Below are positions 13,861-38,706 of a DNA stretch of 40,657 nt, piece after piece. The position numbers and the translations under genes are program-made. Position 1 is the first letter of the stretch. Each line of letters starts with the position of its first letter. The DNA is from Candidatus Desulfaltia bathyphila (GTDB lineage Bacteria > Desulfobacterota > Desulfobacteria > Desulfobacterales > ETH-SRB1): the NCBI GenBank assembly GCA_014381545.1, contig JACNLL010000030.1, positions 1 through 40,657 of the forward strand, in the 5' to 3' direction. The notes under the pieces are model-generated. The model did not search any database, was not told where the DNA came from, and saw only the letters and a list, made by a program, of their open reading frames with translations.

Positions 13861-14005
13861 GAAGTTACAAGTGAGCTAAAGTTACAAGTGACTAAAGTTG
13901 AGGTATTCCGGCAATTTTATAAAAAAAATGGAGCGTAGCGACTCATTAACTTTAGCTCACTTTAGGCACTTTAGTTCACTCGTAACTTTTATTGTAATTT
14001 TAACC
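13861..14005. repeat. Hairpin repeat family C, copy 1
   Basis: Facing arrays of AAGTTACAAGTGAGCTAAAG-type units enclose a core of about 55 bases containing GGCAATTTTATA and ATGGAGCGTAGCGACTCATT. The right end reads, in inverse, GGTTAAAATTACAATAAAAG, identical to the left end of copies 2 and 3 (25580, 32090). It fills the convergent spacer between the NUDIX gene and pgi. Confidence 0.75.
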
Positions 14006-19727: not shown

Positions 19728-19903
19728 CCTTAAGAATTTAGGAATTGAGGGATTTAGGAATTTAGGAATTCGCTTCGCTTAATTGCGAATTTAGGAATTC
19801 ATGGATTCAGGAATTAAAGGTGTTCTGTTGATTTCAATCCCTCTATTCTCTATTCTCTTTCCTATTTTACTTAGCGCCTTTGCGCCTTTGCGTGAGCAAT
19901 TCC
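19728..19903. repeat. Multiple short-unit arrays in the leuC-leuD spacer
   Basis: Reading from leuC to leuD, the spacer holds a GATTGAGGAATT start continuous with the leuC stop, a CACGCAAAGGCGCAAAGGCG phrase, an AGAGAATAGAGAATAGAGGG phrase, and an 8-bp array of TAAATTCC/TAAATCCC-type units up to the leuD ribosome site. At least three different array types are packed in 184 bases, some inverted relative to others. Confidence 0.7.
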
Positions 19904-21190
19904 TCAATCCCTGAATTCATTGGAATTAGTGATATACCCTGTTATAGCTGTTGCAGCAGCCGTTGCCGGGCTCATCAGATGAACCATACCCCCCTTGCCC
20001 ATCCGTCCATTGAAATTCCGGTTCGTTGTCGAAGCGCATACTTCGCCTTCGGCAAGCACTCCGTTGCTCATGCCAAGACATGCACCGCATGTCGGGTTGG
20101 TCACACAAAATCCTGCGTCCATGAATATTTTTAATATTCCTTCCTCCATTGCCTGGCTGAAAACCTTTGGGGTGGCCGGTGATAGAATGCCGCGGACCGA
20201 ATCGCTGATCTTCTCCCCCTTTAATACCTGTGCGGCGACACGAAGATCTTCAATCCTTCCATTTGTGCACGATCCAATATAAACTTGGTCTATCTTTATT
20301 TCTCCCATCTCCTTTACAGGTTTTACATGGTCGGGTTTGTATCCGAATGTAACCAGCGGTTCCAGGCGGCTTACATCATGCTCAATTATATTTTCATATA
20401 TGGCGTCCGGATCCGGATAAAGTCTTTTATATGCGTCAACAGCCTCCTCTTTTGTTGTGTATTCATCTTTGATAAACTCCCACAGATACTCCACTGTCGT
20501 CATATCAGGACAGCATATACCGCAGGTTGCGCCGGCTTCAATCGCCATATTGCAGCATGTCATTCTGGCTTCCATGCTCATGGCGTCCACTACTGGTCCG
20601 GTAAATTCTATAACCTTGTCGGTTGCGCCGTTTACGCTTAGCCTTCCAATGATGGAAAGGATAACATCCTTTGCATAAACTCCTTCAGGCATTTGACCGC
20701 TTATGTTTATTTTGATCGTCGAAGGATAATGAAATGCACACACGCCTTTCAGGATACCCACCTCAAGATCTGTTGTGCCAACACCGGCTGCAAACGCGCC
20801 AAATGCTCCGTGAGTGCAGGTATGAGAATCACCCATAATCACCGTATAACCCGGGCGCACAAACCCTTTTTCCGGAAATATTGCATGACAAACCCCGTTT
20901 CTGCCGATATCAAAAAAATCCCTGATATTGTGGCGCAGCGCCCACTCTCGCAGAATTTTACCCTGCATGGCTGTTTTAGAATCCTTTGCAGGAGTCACGT
21001 GGTCGATTACAGCCTTGATTTTAGTGGAATCAAAAACTCTGTCCTTACCCCTAACGATTAAATCATTTATCGCTCCAGGGGTTGTTATTTCGTGGCAGAA
21101 TACAGCATCCAGCCTTATTACATGGATATCTCCCGACGGGTTATCAACTAAGTGAGAATCAAAAATTTTTTCAGCAATCGTTTTGCCCAT
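19904..21190 (-). CDS. leuC: 3-isopropylmalate dehydratase large subunit
   Basis: Iron-sulfur aconitase-family subunit of isopropylmalate isomerase. The 428 residues include MGDSHTCTHGAFGAFAAGVG, the cluster-binding Cys in YIGSCTNGR and the Cys pair in NPTCGACLG, and the substrate segment STTNRNFNGRMG. This is the short LeuC type that works with a separate small subunit, encoded next. The last codons (AGG GAT TGA) match the repeat unit of the following array, so the extreme C-terminus is shared with repeat sequence. Confidence 0.93.
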   Translation of the reverse strand: MGKTIAEKIFDSHLVDNPSGDIHVIRLDAVFCHEITTPGAINDLIVRGKDRVFDSTKIKAVIDHVTPAKDSKTAMQGKILREWALRHNIRDFFDIGRNGVCHAIFPEKGFVRPGYTVIMGDSHTCTHGAFGAFAAGVGTTDLEVGILKGVCAFHYPSTIKINISGQMPEGVYAKDVILSIIGRLSVNGATDKVIEFTGPVVDAMSMEARMTCCNMAIEAGATCGICCPDMTTVEYLWEFIKDEYTTKEEAVDAYKRLYPDPDAIYENIIEHDVSRLEPLVTFGYKPDHVKPVKEMGEIKIDQVYIGSCTNGRIEDLRVAAQVLKGEKISDSVRGILSPATPKVFSQAMEEGILKIFMDAGFCVTNPTCGACLGMSNGVLAEGEVCASTTNRNFNGRMGKGGMVHLMSPATAAATAITGYITNSNEFRD

Positions 21191-21202: not shown

Positions 21203-21244
21203 ATTTAATTTAGGAATTTAGGGATTAAGGAATTGAGGAATTTC
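21203..21244. repeat. Left array flanking the S23 pseudogene
   Basis: Units of the AGGAATTT/AGGGATTA type run between leuC and the pseudogene. They are in inverse orientation to the 8-bp array at the other side of the pseudogene, so the gene sits between facing arrays. Confidence 0.65.
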
Positions 21245-21254
21245 TGATTTACTG

Positions 21255-21645
21255 CTATTCTTTGAAGTCGTAATCCCGCAAATACTTTCTAAATCCCTTG
21301 ATTTGCTTACGACATTCTGAGGCAATCTCATAAGCCCTTTCAAACTGATTTTGGTTAATATATTTACAGTCTAATGCCCTATATAATTGGGATTGCACTT
21401 CACTGCATGATCTTTGAGAATACCCTAAGAACCGGATAAACTCACGAGTGGAACCATCGTCAAAGCCTTCCGCTATATTGTCCATTACCGACCCGGCAGC
21501 GCTCCACATTTGATTCCTCAAGCTGAAATCCTTTCAAGCTGAAATCCTTTGAACATTTCCCTTGATTGATTAAATCAAAAATGACCTTGCATAGCTCCCT
21601 CGACTTTTTCCAGCATGGTAATTCCTCAAACCTCTTATAATTCAT
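21255..21645 (-). pseudogene. Four-helix-bundle (S23/IVS-type) protein, frameshifted by a 16-bp duplication
   Basis: Read continuously, an N-terminal frame (MNYKRFEELPCWKKSRELCK...GKCSKDFSL) passes into a C-terminal frame (RNQMWSAAGSVMDNIAEGFD...) only if one copy of a 16-base tandem duplication (21519-21550) is removed. The corrected product would be 124 residues, the normal size for the S23 four-helix-bundle family first found in 23S rRNA intervening sequences and related to the Avd protein of diversity-generating retroelements. Without correction the upstream frame ends after 61 residues. The biological role of stand-alone S23 proteins is not established. The break looks recent because the rest is intact, and slippage could restore it. 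Confidence 0.85.
21519..21550. repeat. Perfect 16-bp tandem duplication inside the S23 gene
   Basis: CAAGCTGAAATCCTTT occurs twice with no gap (21519-21534, 21535-21550). Sixteen is not a multiple of three, so it shifts the reading frame. It is the only visible lesion in the gene. Confidence 0.95.
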
Positions 21646-21707
21646 AATCCCCCAATCCCTAAATCCCTCAATCCCTAAATCCCTTAATCGCTCAATCCCT
21701 CAATCGC
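21644..21707 (-). repeat. Eight exact 8-bp units from the lepA stop to the S23 start codon
   Basis: On the minus strand eight consecutive 8-mers follow the consensus G(G/C)GATTNN without a gap or slip. The first unit (21700-21707) is GCGATTGA and contains the last lepA codon and its TGA stop. The last unit (GGGATTAT) supplies the first two bases of the S23 ATG. This is the most regular of the spacer arrays in the window. Confidence 0.9.
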
Positions 21708-24055: not shown

Positions 24056-24155
24056 GTGTTAGGTGTTAAATATAATTTTGAGTTTTTAATTTTGAATTTT
24101 GAATAAAGGAAAAACCGTTTTTAATTTAAAATTAAACATTTAAAATTAAAAATTA
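24056..24155. repeat. Inverted AATTTTGA-type arrays between rfbA and rfbC
   Basis: Left units such as AATTTTGAGTTTTTAATTTTGA face right units such as TTAAAATTAAACATTTAAAATT around a short centre. A GTGTTAGGTGTTAA phrase lies at the left edge. The AATTTTGA type recurs at 34866. No gene is present. Confidence 0.6.
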
Positions 24156-25071: not shown

Positions 25072-25256
25072 TGAACGTCCAACATCGAACATTGAACGTC
25101 CAACATCGAATAATGATGTCGCTCCGCTCCTCAAATTATTCTGACATCAAATGAAAAAACAAACACCAAATACCGAACAGTAAGCAGATATTTCTGTTTC
25201 TTCATTTTTCCCATTCAACATTCGATGTTGGACGTTCGATGTTCGATGTTCATTTT
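25072..25256. repeat. 31-bp inverted arms of a TCGAACAT-type array around a 108-bp core
   Basis: The left arm (25081-25111) and right arm (25220-25250) are inverted copies with 30 of 31 bases matching. Each is built from repeated AACATCGAAC/CGTCCAAC units, and the left arm carries one extra unit outward (25072-25080). The core (25112-25219) has no convincing gene. It lies upstream of rfbA. Confidence 0.85.
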
Positions 25257-34861: not shown

Positions 34862-34957
34862 ATAATTTTGAATTTTGAGTGTTGAATTTTGAGTTGAAGG
34901 GATTAGGGAATTTGAGCCCTGAACGCTGAACCTTGAACCGTGAACCTGAGTAGTTAC
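34862..34957. repeat. Two array types upstream of mqnE
   Basis: An AATTTTGAATTTTGAGTGTT-type array is followed by a TGAACGCTGAACCTTGAACC-type array ending CCTGAGTAGTTACG, which abuts the mqnE ATG. The same ending phrase is found at about 19181 (CCTGAGTAGCTCC). Confidence 0.6.
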
Positions 34958-34958
34958 G

Positions 34959-36044
34959 ATGAAACTGTCTTTCTCAGATAAAAGTTTGTATAAAATAAAA
35001 GAAAAGATCGGGGCTGGAGTTCGCCTTGACTTTGAAGACGGTATTATCCTGTACAAAAGCAATGATCTTATAGGTGTCGGACGTCTAGCAGACATGGTGC
35101 GCCGCGAAAAACATGATCGCAAGGCCTACTATGTATATAATCAGCATATAAATTACACAAACATCTGTACAAATCACTGCCTGTTTTGCGCATACGCCAG
35201 GGATAAAGGAGAAAATGGCGCTTTTACATTCTCAATTGATGATGTCAGAGCAAAACTATTAGAACAAATCGACGAACCGGTTCGCGAATTACATGTTGTT
35301 GGCGGCCTTAACCCTTCCCTCCCCTTTAATTATTATATCGATCTGTTAAAAACCATTAAAGAAATCCGGCCGAATGCAACCATCAAGGCGTTTACCGCTG
35401 TTGAGATAGATCATATTTCCAGAGTTGCGAATCTGTCTCTGGATGAAACCATCATCAGCCTGAAGAATGCCGGTCTTTCAATGATCCCCGGTGGTGGCGC
35501 TGAAGTAATGAACAGCAGGGTTAAAAAAAGACTTTTCCCTAAAAAGATAGACGGCAAAAGATGGCTTGAAATCATGCAAAGTCTGCATAGCGCTGGAATC
35601 ACCTCAAACGCAACAATGCTTTACGGTCATATTGAAACCATTGAAGAGCGCGTAGATCATCTTGTCAGATTAAGAGATCTGCAGGATAAAACAGGCGGTT
35701 TTTCAGCCTTCATTCCCCTTGCCTTTCATTCAAAAAACACAAAATTATCACAAATTCCAGCCACCACAGCCTTTGACGATTTAAAGAATGTGGCGACAGC
35801 CCGCCTCATGCTTGATAATTTTGATCATATCAAAGCGTACTGGGTTATGATAGGAGAAAAAGTGGCGCAGGTCGCTCTTTCCTTTGGAGCGGATGATCTG
35901 GACGGAACCATAATCGAAGAAAAGATTACACATATGGCCGGCGCAAAATCGGCAAAAGGATTGACCAGCAAATGGATAAAGCATCTTATATCTTCGGCAG
36001 GGTTTACTCCTGTTGAAAGGGATTCTTTTTATAATCCTGTTTAA
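34959..36044 (+). CDS. mqnE: Aminofutalosine synthase MqnE (radical SAM)
   Basis: MqnE joins the enolpyruvyl group to the purine nucleoside in the futalosine route to menaquinone. The radical SAM cluster is Cys70, Cys74 and Cys77 (CTNHCLFC). VVGGLNPSLPFNYY, MIPGGGAEV and HIETIEERVDHL are typical of MqnE rather than CofH. Length is 361. It is followed by mqnC with an S23 cassette between. No clear ribosome site is left at the start, which abuts a repeat array. Confidence 0.92.
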   Translation: MKLSFSDKSLYKIKEKIGAGVRLDFEDGIILYKSNDLIGVGRLADMVRREKHDRKAYYVYNQHINYTNICTNHCLFCAYARDKGENGAFTFSIDDVRAKLLEQIDEPVRELHVVGGLNPSLPFNYYIDLLKTIKEIRPNATIKAFTAVEIDHISRVANLSLDETIISLKNAGLSMIPGGGAEVMNSRVKKRLFPKKIDGKRWLEIMQSLHSAGITSNATMLYGHIETIEERVDHLVRLRDLQDKTGGFSAFIPLAFHSKNTKLSQIPATTAFDDLKNVATARLMLDNFDHIKAYWVMIGEKVAQVALSFGADDLDGTIIEEKITHMAGAKSAKGLTSKWIKHLISSAGFTPVERDSFYNPV

Positions 36045-36047
36045 TGT

Positions 36048-36496
36048 ATTGTAACTGTTCACGGTTTACAGTTATCAGTTCACGGTTGAAAAAACAGAAG
36101 GTAGAAAAGAATTATGGGGTCCTCTTTTGAAGATTTAGAAGTTTGGAAAAAATCTTGTAGGTTATCAGTACGTCTTTATAAATTATTAAGAAATTGCCGT
36201 GGTTATGGAATGAAAGATCAAATGCTGCGCTCATCTATATCTATTCCATCAAATATTGCGGAAGGAAGCGAAAGAAAGAGTATTCCGGATTTCCAAAGGT
36301 TTATAAATATTGCGCAAGGATCGGCTGGGGAGCTGAGAACACAGATTTATATTTCACGAAAAGTTAATATATTTTCTGATTTAGATGCGGAAGAATTAAT
36401 TCAAGAGTTGAAATCAATATCCAAAATGCTTCAATCGTTGCATAGTTCATTAAAAAAACTGTGAACTGTGAACCGACAACCGTGAACGGTTACAAT
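36048..36496. mobile_element. S23 cassette: 449-bp unit with inverted ends between mqnE and mqnC
   Basis: ATTGTAACTGTTCACGGTT (36048-36066) is inverted at 36478-36496 with one mismatch in 19. Inside each end, GTTCAC/GGTTCACAG-type units extend the facing arrays. The only gene within is the S23 protein. The unit begins 3 bases after the mqnE stop and ends immediately before the bases ATGTTTTACC upstream of mqnC, so it looks like a discrete insertion. Mobility is inferred from this layout. Confidence 0.65.
36114..36464 (+). CDS. Four-helix-bundle (S23/IVS-type) protein, intact
   Basis: The 116-residue protein has the S23 family layout: FEDLEVWKKSCRLSVRLYK at the N-terminus, MKDQMLRSSISIPSNIAEGS in the middle (the most conserved stretch), and helical segments to the end. 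The family includes 23S rRNA intervening-sequence proteins and Avd of diversity-generating retroelements and forms pentamers with a basic surface that can bind nucleic acid; the role of free-standing members is unknown. AGAAGG lies upstream of the ATG. It is the only gene in the inverted-end cassette and is a divergent relative of the broken copy at 21255-21645. Confidence 0.9.
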   Translation: MGSSFEDLEVWKKSCRLSVRLYKLLRNCRGYGMKDQMLRSSISIPSNIAEGSERKSIPDFQRFINIAQGSAGELRTQIYISRKVNIFSDLDAEELIQELKSISKMLQSLHSSLKKL

Positions 36497-36526
36497 ATGT
36501 TTTACCACGAAGAACAGAAGATTCTT

Positions 36527-37591
36527 ATGACTTCTATTGTTGAAATTACTGAAAAGGTCGCCTTGAACGAGCGTATCGATTATAAAGAAGCTCTTACACT
36601 TTTTACTGATGCCGACACTCTTACTCTGGCCGACCTGGCCGATAAAAGAAGACAAGCCCTTCACCCTGAACCTGTTGTCACCTATGTGGTTGACCGGAAT
36701 ATCAATTATACCAATATATGCGTGTCAGGCTGCCTGTTTTGCGCCTTTTACCGCCCTCTAAACCATCCTGATGCATATATTATCTCAAAAAAAAATTTAA
36801 AAAAAAAGATTGAAGAAACGCTCAGCCTCGGTGGAACACAGATACTGCTTCAGGGAGGGATGCATCCATCGCTGGATTTAGATTTTTATGTGGATCTTTT
36901 GCAGTATATAAAGAAAAATTTTTCTATCCATATTCACGGTTTTTCGCCGCCGGAAATAACCTTTTTATCGGAAAAATCATCCCTTTCCATCAAGGATACG
37001 ATAAACCGGCTCATTAACGCGGGGCTGAATTCCATACCGGGCGGTGGCGCAGAAATCCTTGTCGATGAAATAAGGAAAAGGATCTCTCCGAATAAATGCA
37101 CAGCCGGCAAATGGATCGAGGTAATGAAAACAGCGCATAAATGCGGGCTTAAAACCACAGCCACGATGATGTTCGGACATATTGAAAAACCGATCCACAT
37201 CATTGAACACCTTATAAAAATTCGCGGACTTCAGGATGAAACAGGCGGCTTTACAGCATTTATTCCATGGACATTTCAACCTGACAATACACGTCTCCAA
37301 GTTCAAAAAGCCACTGCTGTGGAATATCTCAGAGTACTCTCTATTTGCAGACTGGTTCTGGATAATATCCCAAACATCCAGGCATCATGGGTAACACAGG
37401 GTGATAAGATTGTCCAGGTTGCCCTTGCATTTGGGGCAAACGATCTCGGAAGCACAATGATAGAAGAAAATGTGGTGGCAGCCGCAGGAGTAAAATTCCG
37501 GCTGCCAAAAGAGGAAATGGTGCGCCTGATACAGGATGCAGGATACAGAGTTGTTCAAAGGGACTGTTATTATAATTCTGTTAACAGGTAA
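36527..37591 (+). CDS. mqnC: Cyclic dehypoxanthinyl futalosine synthase MqnC (radical SAM)
   Basis: MqnC cyclises dehypoxanthine futalosine, a later futalosine-pathway step. The cluster motif is Cys65, Cys69 and Cys72 (CVSGCLFC) in this numbering; LLQGGMHPSLDLDFYVDL, SIPGGGAEI and FGHIEKPIHIIEHL are characteristic. The start is uncertain: GTG 36461 lies in the S23 cassette, ATG 36497 opens into a CACGAAGAACAGAAG repeat-like phrase, and ATG 36527 gives the N-terminus MTSIVEITEKVALNERIDYK, which fits the family best and is used here. No strong ribosome site is visible. Confidence 0.92.
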   Translation: MTSIVEITEKVALNERIDYKEALTLFTDADTLTLADLADKRRQALHPEPVVTYVVDRNINYTNICVSGCLFCAFYRPLNHPDAYIISKKNLKKKIEETLSLGGTQILLQGGMHPSLDLDFYVDLLQYIKKNFSIHIHGFSPPEITFLSEKSSLSIKDTINRLINAGLNSIPGGGAEILVDEIRKRISPNKCTAGKWIEVMKTAHKCGLKTTATMMFGHIEKPIHIIEHLIKIRGLQDETGGFTAFIPWTFQPDNTRLQVQKATAVEYLRVLSICRLVLDNIPNIQASWVTQGDKIVQVALAFGANDLGSTMIEENVVAAAGVKFRLPKEEMVRLIQDAGYRVVQRDCYYNSVNR

Positions 37592-37669: not shown

Positions 37670-38706
37670 GGGACGCTCCTTGATATGTTGGTTACTTACT
37701 TTTCAATAAATTTAATTTATTTTCCTTTGCAATCTTTTCACCACGGTTTGCTGATTGGCTTACTGTGTTCCCTTGATGCCCAGAAACAGACTAAGCTTCT
37801 CGCCTGTACCCGATGGGGTTGTCTGCCTGAAGATAATACTTCAGCCCTATTAACTCCCAATACTTCAGCCACGCGATCAACAACTGTATTGAAATCATAT
37901 CCCCTGGCCTTTAACAAATAGTTACGATCAAACTTATCCTGAGAGACTTTTAATACAGTTTCAACAAAATCGCTGTCGCCTAAAATCCTTTCATCCCCTT
38001 TCATATACGCTTTTATCTTTCTCAATCCTTTGAGTGCATCCCATCCTCCGGCACTTCTGACAAGCCCCCCACCGATAAGATCCGGCCTTTTCCCAACTGA
38101 TATTCCTTTCTTAACATATTCGCGATACCGCCTGCGTGCTAATGACAACCTGGTATTAAATAATTTGAGGACATAATCGGTATCCTGCCAATCGTTCTTT
38201 TTCCTTCCCATTATTGCAGCATGACCACTATACGTATATTTATCCAGAAACTTAAGGTCAGCTACGATTTTAGCTCTAATAGGATTCAAATGAATATACC
38301 TTACAAGTTCAAGCAGATATGCATCTTCCTGGCAAAGAATCGATTTATATCGATTTTGAAATAAATGGCCCGCACGACGATGTTTACGATTGAAATAGAT
38401 TGCGTGACCGGTCAGAAGTCTTTTCATAACGATTGATATTGGAGCACTGCCGGTTCGTAAAAGCAAATGAAAATGATTGGGAATTAATGCCCAAGCAAAA
38501 CACAATGTAGCGCTATCTGTTAAAATATTTTTCAACCGTTCTAAAAAAATATCTTTATCAACATCATCCATAAAGATGCTTTTTCTATCGATGCCTCTAA
38601 CTATGATATGATGTAACGCCCCAGGCGCATCTATTCTTGATCTACGTGGCATATTTATTTTTATAATAGATTTTATTCAATATGTCAATATATGAAGGAG
38701 CGTCCC
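37670..38706. mobile_element. RAYT transposase unit with inverted ends
   Basis: GGGACGCTCCTTGATAT (37670-37686) is inverted at 38690-38706 with one mismatch in 17. The unit contains a single minus-strand transposase gene. Such GGGACGCTCCTT-type ends around a Y1 transposase indicate a discrete mobile or formerly mobile segment of about 1.04 kb. Confidence 0.75.
37738..38652 (-). CDS. REP-associated tyrosine transposase (Y1/IS200-like), C-terminus frameshifted
   Basis: HUH-type single-strand transposase of the RAYT branch. The metal motif His60-Phe-His62 (NHFHLLL), the catalytic Tyr119 in VRYIHLNPIRAK, and GHLFQNRYKSI are clear. The C-terminus normally has a DnaA-like helix-turn-helix ending in ...RGEKIAKEN. 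Here the frame goes from CFWASRE into HSKPISKPW and stops, while the neighbouring frame reads VSQSANRGEKIAKENKLNLL and stops at 37692. A small deletion with frameshift has therefore removed part of the helix-turn-helix. The catalytic domain is intact; DNA recognition is probably impaired. Confidence 0.88.
   Translation of the reverse strand: MPRRSRIDAPGALHHIIVRGIDRKSIFMDDVDKDIFLERLKNILTDSATLCFAWALIPNHFHLLLRTGSAPISIVMKRLLTGHAIYFNRKHRRAGHLFQNRYKSILCQEDAYLLELVRYIHLNPIRAKIVADLKFLDKYTYSGHAAIMGRKKNDWQDTDYVLKLFNTRLSLARRRYREYVKKGISVGKRPDLIGGGLVRSAGGWDALKGLRKIKAYMKGDERILGDSDFVETVLKVSQDKFDRNYLLKARGYDFNTVVDRVAEVLGVNRAEVLSSGRQPHRVQARSLVCFWASREHSKPISKPW

What the first reader, a model, noticed from the sequence alone, without database searches (positions are those of the whole stretch)
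36048..36496. Compact 449-bp S23 cassette with 19-bp inverted ends between mqnE and mqnC
The ends match at 18 of 19 bases in inverse, the only gene is an intact S23 four-helix-bundle protein, and the unit fits exactly between the mqnE stop and the mqnC leader. The second S23 gene in the window is also enclosed by facing arrays. Two of two suggests that S23 proteins travel with, or act on, inverted arrays, perhaps as single-gene mobile units mobilised in trans or as structured-RNA-binding proteins. S23 relatives Avd and IVS proteins work on RNA and retroelement machinery.
Basis: partly seen in the sequence, partly recalled or inferred. Interest (0 to 1): 0.8.

Follow-up and report, generated by a model that had tools for sequence, protein, structure and literature searches.

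The report
S23 gene as mobile DNA cassette
A tiny one-gene piece of DNA in this bacterium turns out to be a jumping element with inverted ends and an 8-base target duplication, and genes of the same mysterious S23 protein family in many other phyla often sit between the same kind of facing 7-base repeat arrays, which makes an old guess about 'intervening sequences' in ribosomal RNA testable.

Summary
Observation confirmed. Window 36051-36493 is a 443-bp element: 14-bp inverted ends (GTAACYGTTCACGG), heptamer-like facing arms, one intact S23 gene, and an imperfect 8-bp target duplication (6/8). It is mobile: a copy 95% identical over 461 bp lies at another locus in another genus, similarity ending near the tips; three further copies sit at other loci in two species; a same-genus relative has an empty mqnE-mqnC junction; another genus keeps the arms there without the gene. 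Among 41 elements with such ends, 8-bp duplications are strongly enriched (44% at >=7/8 versus 0.7%). Gene-less copies are internal deletions of S23 cassettes, some with their own duplications. IS66-type insertion sequences in related genomes have similar ends and 8-bp duplications, so trans-mobilisation is the best model, but IS66 is not detected in this genome and does not predict S23. S23 is under purifying selection; S23 loci in co-directional gaps lie almost only in sense (46:1), gene-less copies 15:7. More generally, 57/72 S23 loci in this bacterial family and 49/78 in many phyla have facing complementary arrays (control windows 1%). GTAA-tipped S23 cassettes were not seen among those 78. 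S23's molecular role remains inferred.

The parts
36051..36493 (+). 443-bp mobile S23 cassette, tip to tip
36051..36064 (+). left terminal inverted repeat GTAACTGTTCACGG (13 of 14 with the right one)
36480..36493 (-). right terminal inverted repeat GTAACCGTTCACGG (read on minus strand)
36043..36050 (+). left copy of 8-bp target duplication, AATGTATT
   Evidence: 6 of 8 with the right copy
36494..36501 (+). right copy of 8-bp target duplication, AATATGTT
36051..36087 (+). left arm, imperfect 7-bp units (GTTCACG/GTTTACA, read by eye)
36457..36493 (+). right arm, facing 7-bp units (AACTGTG)
36114..36464 (+). intact S23 / four-helix-bundle ORF, 116 aa (PF05635, TIGR02436)
36497..37591 (+). mqnC-like gene downstream; the ATG at 36497 lies in the target duplication, so the true start is probably the ATG at 36527 (inference: several relatives align from residue 11)
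21208..21688 (-). second S23 cassette: arms 21208-21242 and 21654-21688, 8-bp units; S23 broken here, full-length ORF at the same site in G006, G001, G009
34864..34957 (-). gene-less heptamer arrays with one GTAACTACTCA tip (34947-34957) just before mqnE

Best explanation
Shown by its traces: the cassette belongs to a family of small DNA transposable elements with 14-bp inverted ends and an 8-bp target duplication. It carries S23 as its only gene, has moved between genera and loci, and decays into gene-less miniature elements that move too. Inferred: a transposase of the IS66 type, whose ends (GTAA...TCA) and 8-bp duplication are alike, moves it in trans. Inferred: once it sits in sense inside an operon it is co-transcribed with the host genes, its arms fold into a hairpin with S23 in the loop as in the rRNA intervening sequences, and S23 is made; S23 probably binds the repeat-bearing RNA or DNA of its own element and so helps it persist. 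The wider rule, S23 genes lying between facing 7-8-bp arrays, is shown; its mechanism outside this bacterial family is not.
For: Mobility: the window cassette is 95.2% identical over 461 bp to L049 in another genus at another locus, the match covering 36047-36506; L047, L093 and L090 are further loci. Junction: S23 in 1 of 15 adjacent mqnE-mqnC pairs; G005 empty (4 bp), G007 arms only. Duplication: at length 8 mean match 0.628 against 0.357 for mismatched pairs, other lengths at or near background; 18 of 41 at >=7/8; at >=6/8 S23 cassettes 5 of 8, gene-less 15 of 33, control 3.9%. Derivatives: L132 keeps both arms and the S23 3' end; 79-bp arms-only copies have duplications of their own (L127 8/8, L133 7/8; L128 3/8, L134 5/8). 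IS66: of 34 IS66 loci scanned, 8 have a GTAA pair with an 8/8 duplication, 6 of them with GTAAYYAYTCAG ends (L274, L276, L277, L278, L280, L281). IS66 with 8-bp repeats in print: PMC11946415, PMC3281130 (passages). Selection: dN/dS 0.16-0.39 in the window family, 0.04-0.32 in eight other groups where dS could be estimated, the lowest with saturated dS. Orientation ++46 to --1 for S23 loci, 15 to 7 for gene-less ones, Fisher p 0.001. Hairpin: predicted stem of the two arms with the ORF in the loop, z -3.1.
Against: PF03050 (IS66) is found in 6 of 17 family genomes and not in this one, and it does not predict S23 presence or number in 193 genomes (Fisher p 0.30, Mann-Whitney p 0.34). Among the 34 IS66 loci none had exactly GTAACCGTTCACGG ends, and the G001 element with GTAACTATTCAGGGG ends has no duplication (1 of 8). 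Only 5 of 72 family S23 loci have GTAA tips with <=2 mismatches on both sides (10 on at least one), and 0 of 78 broad loci on both; array ends without tips show no clear duplication. The window's own duplication is 6 of 8, and 18 of 33 gene-less elements are below 6 of 8. G007 has the arms at the same site, so either the insertion is older than both genera and was lost cleanly in G005, or the site was hit twice; the empty site is therefore not proof of a recent insertion. RNA folding is a prediction; binding is untested.
Confidence: 0.7

Rival explanations
1. S23 itself is the mobility factor: the cassette is the autonomous element and S23, with a host enzyme, moves it and its gene-less derivatives; IS66-like ends are a coincidence or a borrowed recognition site.
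For: S23 is the only gene of the full-length element and is under purifying selection although copies lie at unrelated sites; gene-less copies derive from it by internal deletion; IS66 is not found where the elements are abundant (215 tips in G010, no PF03050 match).
Against: S23 matches only PF05635 in Pfam and three four-helix/hypothetical models in NCBIfam, no nuclease; the solved relative 2gsc is reported as five four-helix bundles (reference title seen in PMC10053308); ends and duplication length resemble IS66.
Confidence: 0.2
2. RNA-level element: the cassette inserts through RNA (reverse splicing or target-primed reverse transcription), like DGR/Avd or group II introns, which would explain the sense bias.
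For: Sense bias 46 to 1; PF05635 resembles Avd (PMC10053308, passages).
Against: RVT_1 not found in 5 of 17 draft genomes including G005 with 9 S23 matches; duplication length is 8, not variable; gene-less copies lack a significant bias (15 to 7, p 0.13), so the bias goes with keeping the gene rather than with insertion.
Confidence: 0.05
3. Ordinary operon gene: S23 is a host gene kept beside mqnC and the arrays are unrelated genome repeats.
For: Purifying selection; the second S23 lies at one site in four genomes, broken in one.
Against: 14 of 15 junctions lack S23; near-identical copies elsewhere; flank complementarity far above other genes (score >=15 in 49 of 78 S23 loci versus 3 of 89 other genes).
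Confidence: 0.03
4. RAYT (Y1 transposase) mobilises the units, as it does REP hairpins; such a gene lies next door at 37738-38652.
For: Y1_Tnp matches in 17 of 17 family genomes.
Against: 8-bp duplications are not expected of Y1 enzymes (recalled); tips resemble IS66.
Confidence: 0.05

Closest known systems
23S rRNA intervening sequences (IVS) encoding S23, e.g. Coxiella (PMC4990558; abstract and passages seen)
   Same: 428 nt, single S23 ORF, complementary ends that put the ORF in a hairpin loop; in Coxiella also tandem heptamers just before the ORF.
   Different: Here it lies between protein genes, not in rRNA; it has IS66-like tips, an 8-bp duplication, many loci and gene-less derivatives. 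In that paper past mobility of IVSs is one of several hypotheses.
IS66-family insertion sequences (PMC11946415, PMC3281130, PMC12888890; passages seen)
   Same: Ends beginning GTAA (one reported IS66 end is GTAACCGTCCGGGCA) and 8-bp direct repeats.
   Different: No transposase in the cassette.
Bacterial MITEs (general features recalled)
   Same: Short, inverted ends, target duplication, many copies, no transposase.
   Different: The full-length form carries a gene under purifying selection, and its arms are 7-8-bp arrays.
DGR accessory protein Avd (PMC10053308; passages seen)
   Same: Homologous by sequence and structure to PF05635 according to that paper.
   Different: No RT required; template and variable repeats were not looked for.
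Intergenic heptamer arrays, e.g. TAACTGA repeats of Beggiatoaceae (PMC4679880; abstract and passages seen)
   Same: 7-bp tandem units between genes.
   Different: Those are direct repeats with one inverted set, and that main text has no 'S23' or 'four helix'.

Membership tests
MITE-type non-autonomous DNA element | terminal inverted repeats | tested here: met
MITE-type non-autonomous DNA element | fixed-length target duplication | tested here: met
   8 bp over 41 elements; window itself 6 of 8
MITE-type non-autonomous DNA element | multiple copies at different loci, empty sites | tested here: met
MITE-type non-autonomous DNA element | no protein gene | tested here: not met
   intact S23 ORF in full-length copies; met only by derivatives
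IS66 family | ends starting GTAA and 8-bp duplication | tested here: met
IS66 family | encodes its DDE transposase | tested here: not met
   no such ORF in the cassette; no PF03050 match in the genome
23S rRNA IVS | S23 ORF | tested here: met
23S rRNA IVS | ends pair into a stem | tested here: met
   prediction only
23S rRNA IVS | sits in 23S rRNA | tested here: not met
   between mqnE and mqnC
23S rRNA IVS | excised by RNase III | not testable with these tools
   needs RNA
DGR / Avd | reverse transcriptase | tested here: not met
   no RVT_1 match in 5 of 17 genomes that have S23; the window's own genome does have two RVT_1 matches, on other contigs
DGR / Avd | template and variable repeats | not tested
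   not searched for

The most novel reading that the evidence does not exclude
S23 cassettes are a prokaryote-wide class of selfish elements whose core is the S23 gene plus facing 7-8-bp arrays. S23 (five chains in both solved relatives; in print a pentamer of four-helix bundles) recognises the array hairpin and drives or licenses its element's spread, borrowing whatever transposase is at hand; rRNA intervening sequences are just the members that landed in rRNA.
Probability: 0.25. Interest if true: 0.93.

Novelty: new variant of a known kind. Interest (0 to 1): 0.8.

Why it matters
S23/TIGR02436 proteins are widespread and have no known function (so stated in PMC4990558, passages); S23-encoding intervening sequences of rRNA have only been suspected of past mobility. 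Here a family of S23 cassettes is caught with defined ends, a fixed 8-bp duplication, empty sites, cross-genus copies and deletion derivatives, and with a candidate helper transposase that can be tested. The general rule, S23 genes between facing 7-8-bp arrays in many phyla, gives the protein a concrete candidate partner and could account for some of the heptamer arrays scattered through bacterial genomes.

Tried and rejected
Reverse transcriptase as driver: not supported, no match in 5 of 17 genomes. RAYT as driver: present in 17 of 17 but the duplications speak against it. IS66 presence as predictor of S23: no association in 193 genomes, kept as evidence against my own model. Direct duplications at array ends of S23 loci without GTAAC tips: no clear signal (shared word >=7 in 3 of 50 broad loci against 2.1% of mismatched pairs; 6 of 52 family non-tip loci against 4.1%). 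GTAA tips on both sides in broad loci: 0 of 78 (control 0 of 59). Orientation in the 80 broad loci is weaker (++31, +-16, -+15, --9, 9 unassigned on a side); ORFs were called stop to stop, which is noisier in GC-rich genomes. S23 in PADLOC and PHROGs: no match. Full-text searches for print on S23 with arrays or mobility. In the rows listed (12 of 1,730, 12 of 77) the Coxiella paper was the one on S23 elements; PMC2672173 and PMC11270868, on rRNA insertions, were seen in listings only. Searches on heptamer arrays and on IS66. So I claim only that I did not find the association in print in these searches.

Selections and dropped rows: the family set is 76 of the 171 PF05635 matches counted, chosen mostly as full-length with room on both sides; 4 of the 76 were dropped for short flanks. 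In one search, 2 of 80 were dropped. The harsher control, mismatched flanks from other S23 loci, has a 99th percentile of 17.6 (family, 38 of 72 above) and 21.7 (broad, 18 of 78 above by my count of the list). In one search the tip pair of L047 is doubtful (its left tip lies far upstream) and was kept. The de-duplicated orientation count 41 to 1 entered was made by hand by removing five orthologous loci; the 46 includes the broken second S23 of the window. All genomes of the family are drafts, so 'not found' is not proof of absence.

Full report
WHAT IS THERE. Arms 36047-36087 and 36457-36497 are 83% complementary over 41 nt, with 18 of 19 matches at the quoted ends. Between them lies one intact S23 ORF of 116 aa (NCBIfam TIGR02436 'four helix bundle protein'), with solved relatives 2gsc and 2rld. 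The element proper runs from tip to tip, 36051-36493, with GTAACTGTTCACGG and GTAACCGTTCACGG as inverted ends. The tip motif GTARCYRYTCA is found 3 times in the window against 0.09 expected and 67 times in the genome against 10 for the reversed control. GTAACCGTTCACGG with up to 1 mismatch is found 113, 30, 81, 215 and 65 times in five relatives (reversed control 0-5 each).

IT IS MOBILE. I read 15 loci in which mqnE- and mqnC-like genes lie side by side. S23 is present in 1 (own) by reading and by an S23 HMM. G005, of the same genus (89% protein identity), has 4 bp between the genes; G024, G025, G026, G033 and G036 have gaps of 32 bp or less; G007, of another genus, has the same arms without S23; G001, G002, G006, G008, G013 and G014 have other arrays or inverted repeats, and G010 has other filler. 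The window cassette matches L049 of G010 at 95.2% over 461 bp; the match covers 36047-36506, that is the element plus a few bases, although the mqnC proteins of the two species share 77%. L047 (G001) and L093 and L090 (both G005) are further loci. A second family, L100 (G002) and L101 (G013), is 98.8% identical between genera over 410 bp; L100 is cut by its contig end. Because G007 has arms at the same site, the mqnE-mqnC insertion may be old and lost from G005, or the site was hit twice; this is not settled.

EIGHT-BASE DUPLICATION. For 41 elements with tips on both sides (33 without an intact S23 gene, 8 S23 cassettes), matches between left and right flank are near background for lengths 4-7 and 9-11 and jump at 8 (0.628 against 0.357); 44% have at least 7 of 8 against 0.7% of mismatched pairs. 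S23 cassettes alone: 8, 7, 7, 7, 6, 4, 4, 4 of 8; gene-less: 15 of 33 at 6 or more. The window's copies differ at two positions, and the G005 empty site has the length of one copy (my reading).

DELETION DERIVATIVES. L132 in this genome (140 bp) is the window cassette with most of S23 missing; 79-bp copies hold the two arms only, two of them with good duplications (L127 8/8, L133 7/8) and two without (L128 3/8, L134 5/8); L155 and L143 in G010 are like derivatives with 8/8 duplications. So gene-less elements are made from S23 cassettes and still move.

HELPER. No RT seems needed (no RVT_1 in 5 of 17 family genomes; this genome has two matches elsewhere). Of 34 IS66 loci scanned, 8 have a GTAA-ended pair with an 8/8 duplication, six of them 1.6-1.8 kb long with GTAAYYAYTCAG ends, L276 with GTAACTACTCAGGC on both sides. 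A 3.3-kb IS66-type element in G001 has GTAACTATTCAGGGG ends but no duplication. Published IS66 features agree (PMC11946415, PMC3281130, PMC12888890; passages seen). Against it: IS66 is seen in 6 of 17 family genomes and not in this one, no IS66 locus had exactly GTAACCGTTCACGG, and IS66 does not predict S23 in 193 genomes (61 of 76 with IS66 and 86 of 117 without have S23; p 0.30). Helpers may come and go, or assemblies may miss them, but this is not shown.

THE GENE IS KEPT. dN/dS is 0.16-0.39 in the window family and 0.04-0.32 in the other groups where dS could be estimated; the values below 0.08 come mostly with saturated dS. In the family set the longest flanking ORFs on both sides lie on the S23 strand in 46 loci and on the other strand in 1; mixed 9 and 6; 14 of 76 unassigned on at least one side. 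The single antisense case, L007, is a cassette with over half of its S23 gene missing (profile positions 1-46 of 106). Gene-less derivatives: 15 to 7, with 8 and 3 mixed, n 33; Fisher p 0.001 against S23 loci. The simplest reading: insertion is little biased, and S23 survives where the host operon transcribes it. In the broad set the bias is weaker (31 to 9). The predicted RNA puts the ORF in the loop of the arm stem (z -3.1).

THE GENERAL RULE. Facing complementarity of S23 flanks in the family: median 18 against 9 for mismatched flanks and control windows; 57 of 72 above the 99th percentile of 913 control windows, 38 of 72 above that of mismatched S23 flanks. In a named set spread over many phyla, archaea included: median 17.5 against 9.25; 49 of 78 above the 99th and 58 above the 95th percentile of 1618 control windows; 18 of 78 above the 99th percentile of mismatched S23 flanks, a harsh control because unrelated loci can share G-rich units. 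Other genes in the same loci reach score 15 in 3 of 89 (broad) and 2 of 51 (family), S23 loci in 49 of 78 and 52 of 72. Flanks show a period of 7 (broad) or 7 and 8 (family), absent 1 kb away. By eye, units differ between loci, go with the S23 subfamily, and are the same in both arms. The Coxiella intervening sequence, an S23 ORF in a hairpin with tandem heptamers before it (PMC4990558), fits this description. The IS66-like tips do not generalise: both sides in 5 of 72 family loci and 0 of 78 broad loci, so how other S23 cassettes move is open.

VERDICT. The locus is a mobile single-gene element of a new variety, joining features of MITEs, IS66 ends and rRNA intervening sequences. Movement by DNA transposition is shown by its traces; the helper and the action of S23 are inferred.

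Noticed in passing
window 21208-21688: Second S23 cassette is an old insertion shared at the same site (flanks align too) with G006, G001 and G009, whose S23 ORFs are full-length (dN/dS 0.16-0.29); it is broken in this genome.
   Followed up: partly
L004, L065, L073: S23 cassettes in three species lie beside or inside a RAYT-like gene: N-terminal pieces before and/or C-terminal pieces after the cassette align, and no aligned piece covers the HFH motif.
   Followed up: partly
window 37738-38652: Y1 transposase (RAYT-like) gene next to mqnC, convergent with it; such matches are in 17 of 17 family genomes.
   Followed up: partly
L165 2469-5801: IS66-type element in G001 carries a DruA-domain gene beside its transposase.
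   Followed up: no
L011 (G002), mqnE-mqnC junction: Facing GTCGAGT arrays enclose another inverted repeat (TCATTGCGAGG... / ...CGCAATGA), apparently a nested element.
   Followed up: no
window 13862-13980, 19730-19918, 24074-24155, 25073-25251, 34864-34946: Further 7-10-bp arrays without S23 lie in gaps of the window, some facing each other by eye.
   Followed up: no
L008 (G000:C22): An S23 gene with arrays on both sides that also has a longer direct repeat on both sides (by eye).
   Followed up: no
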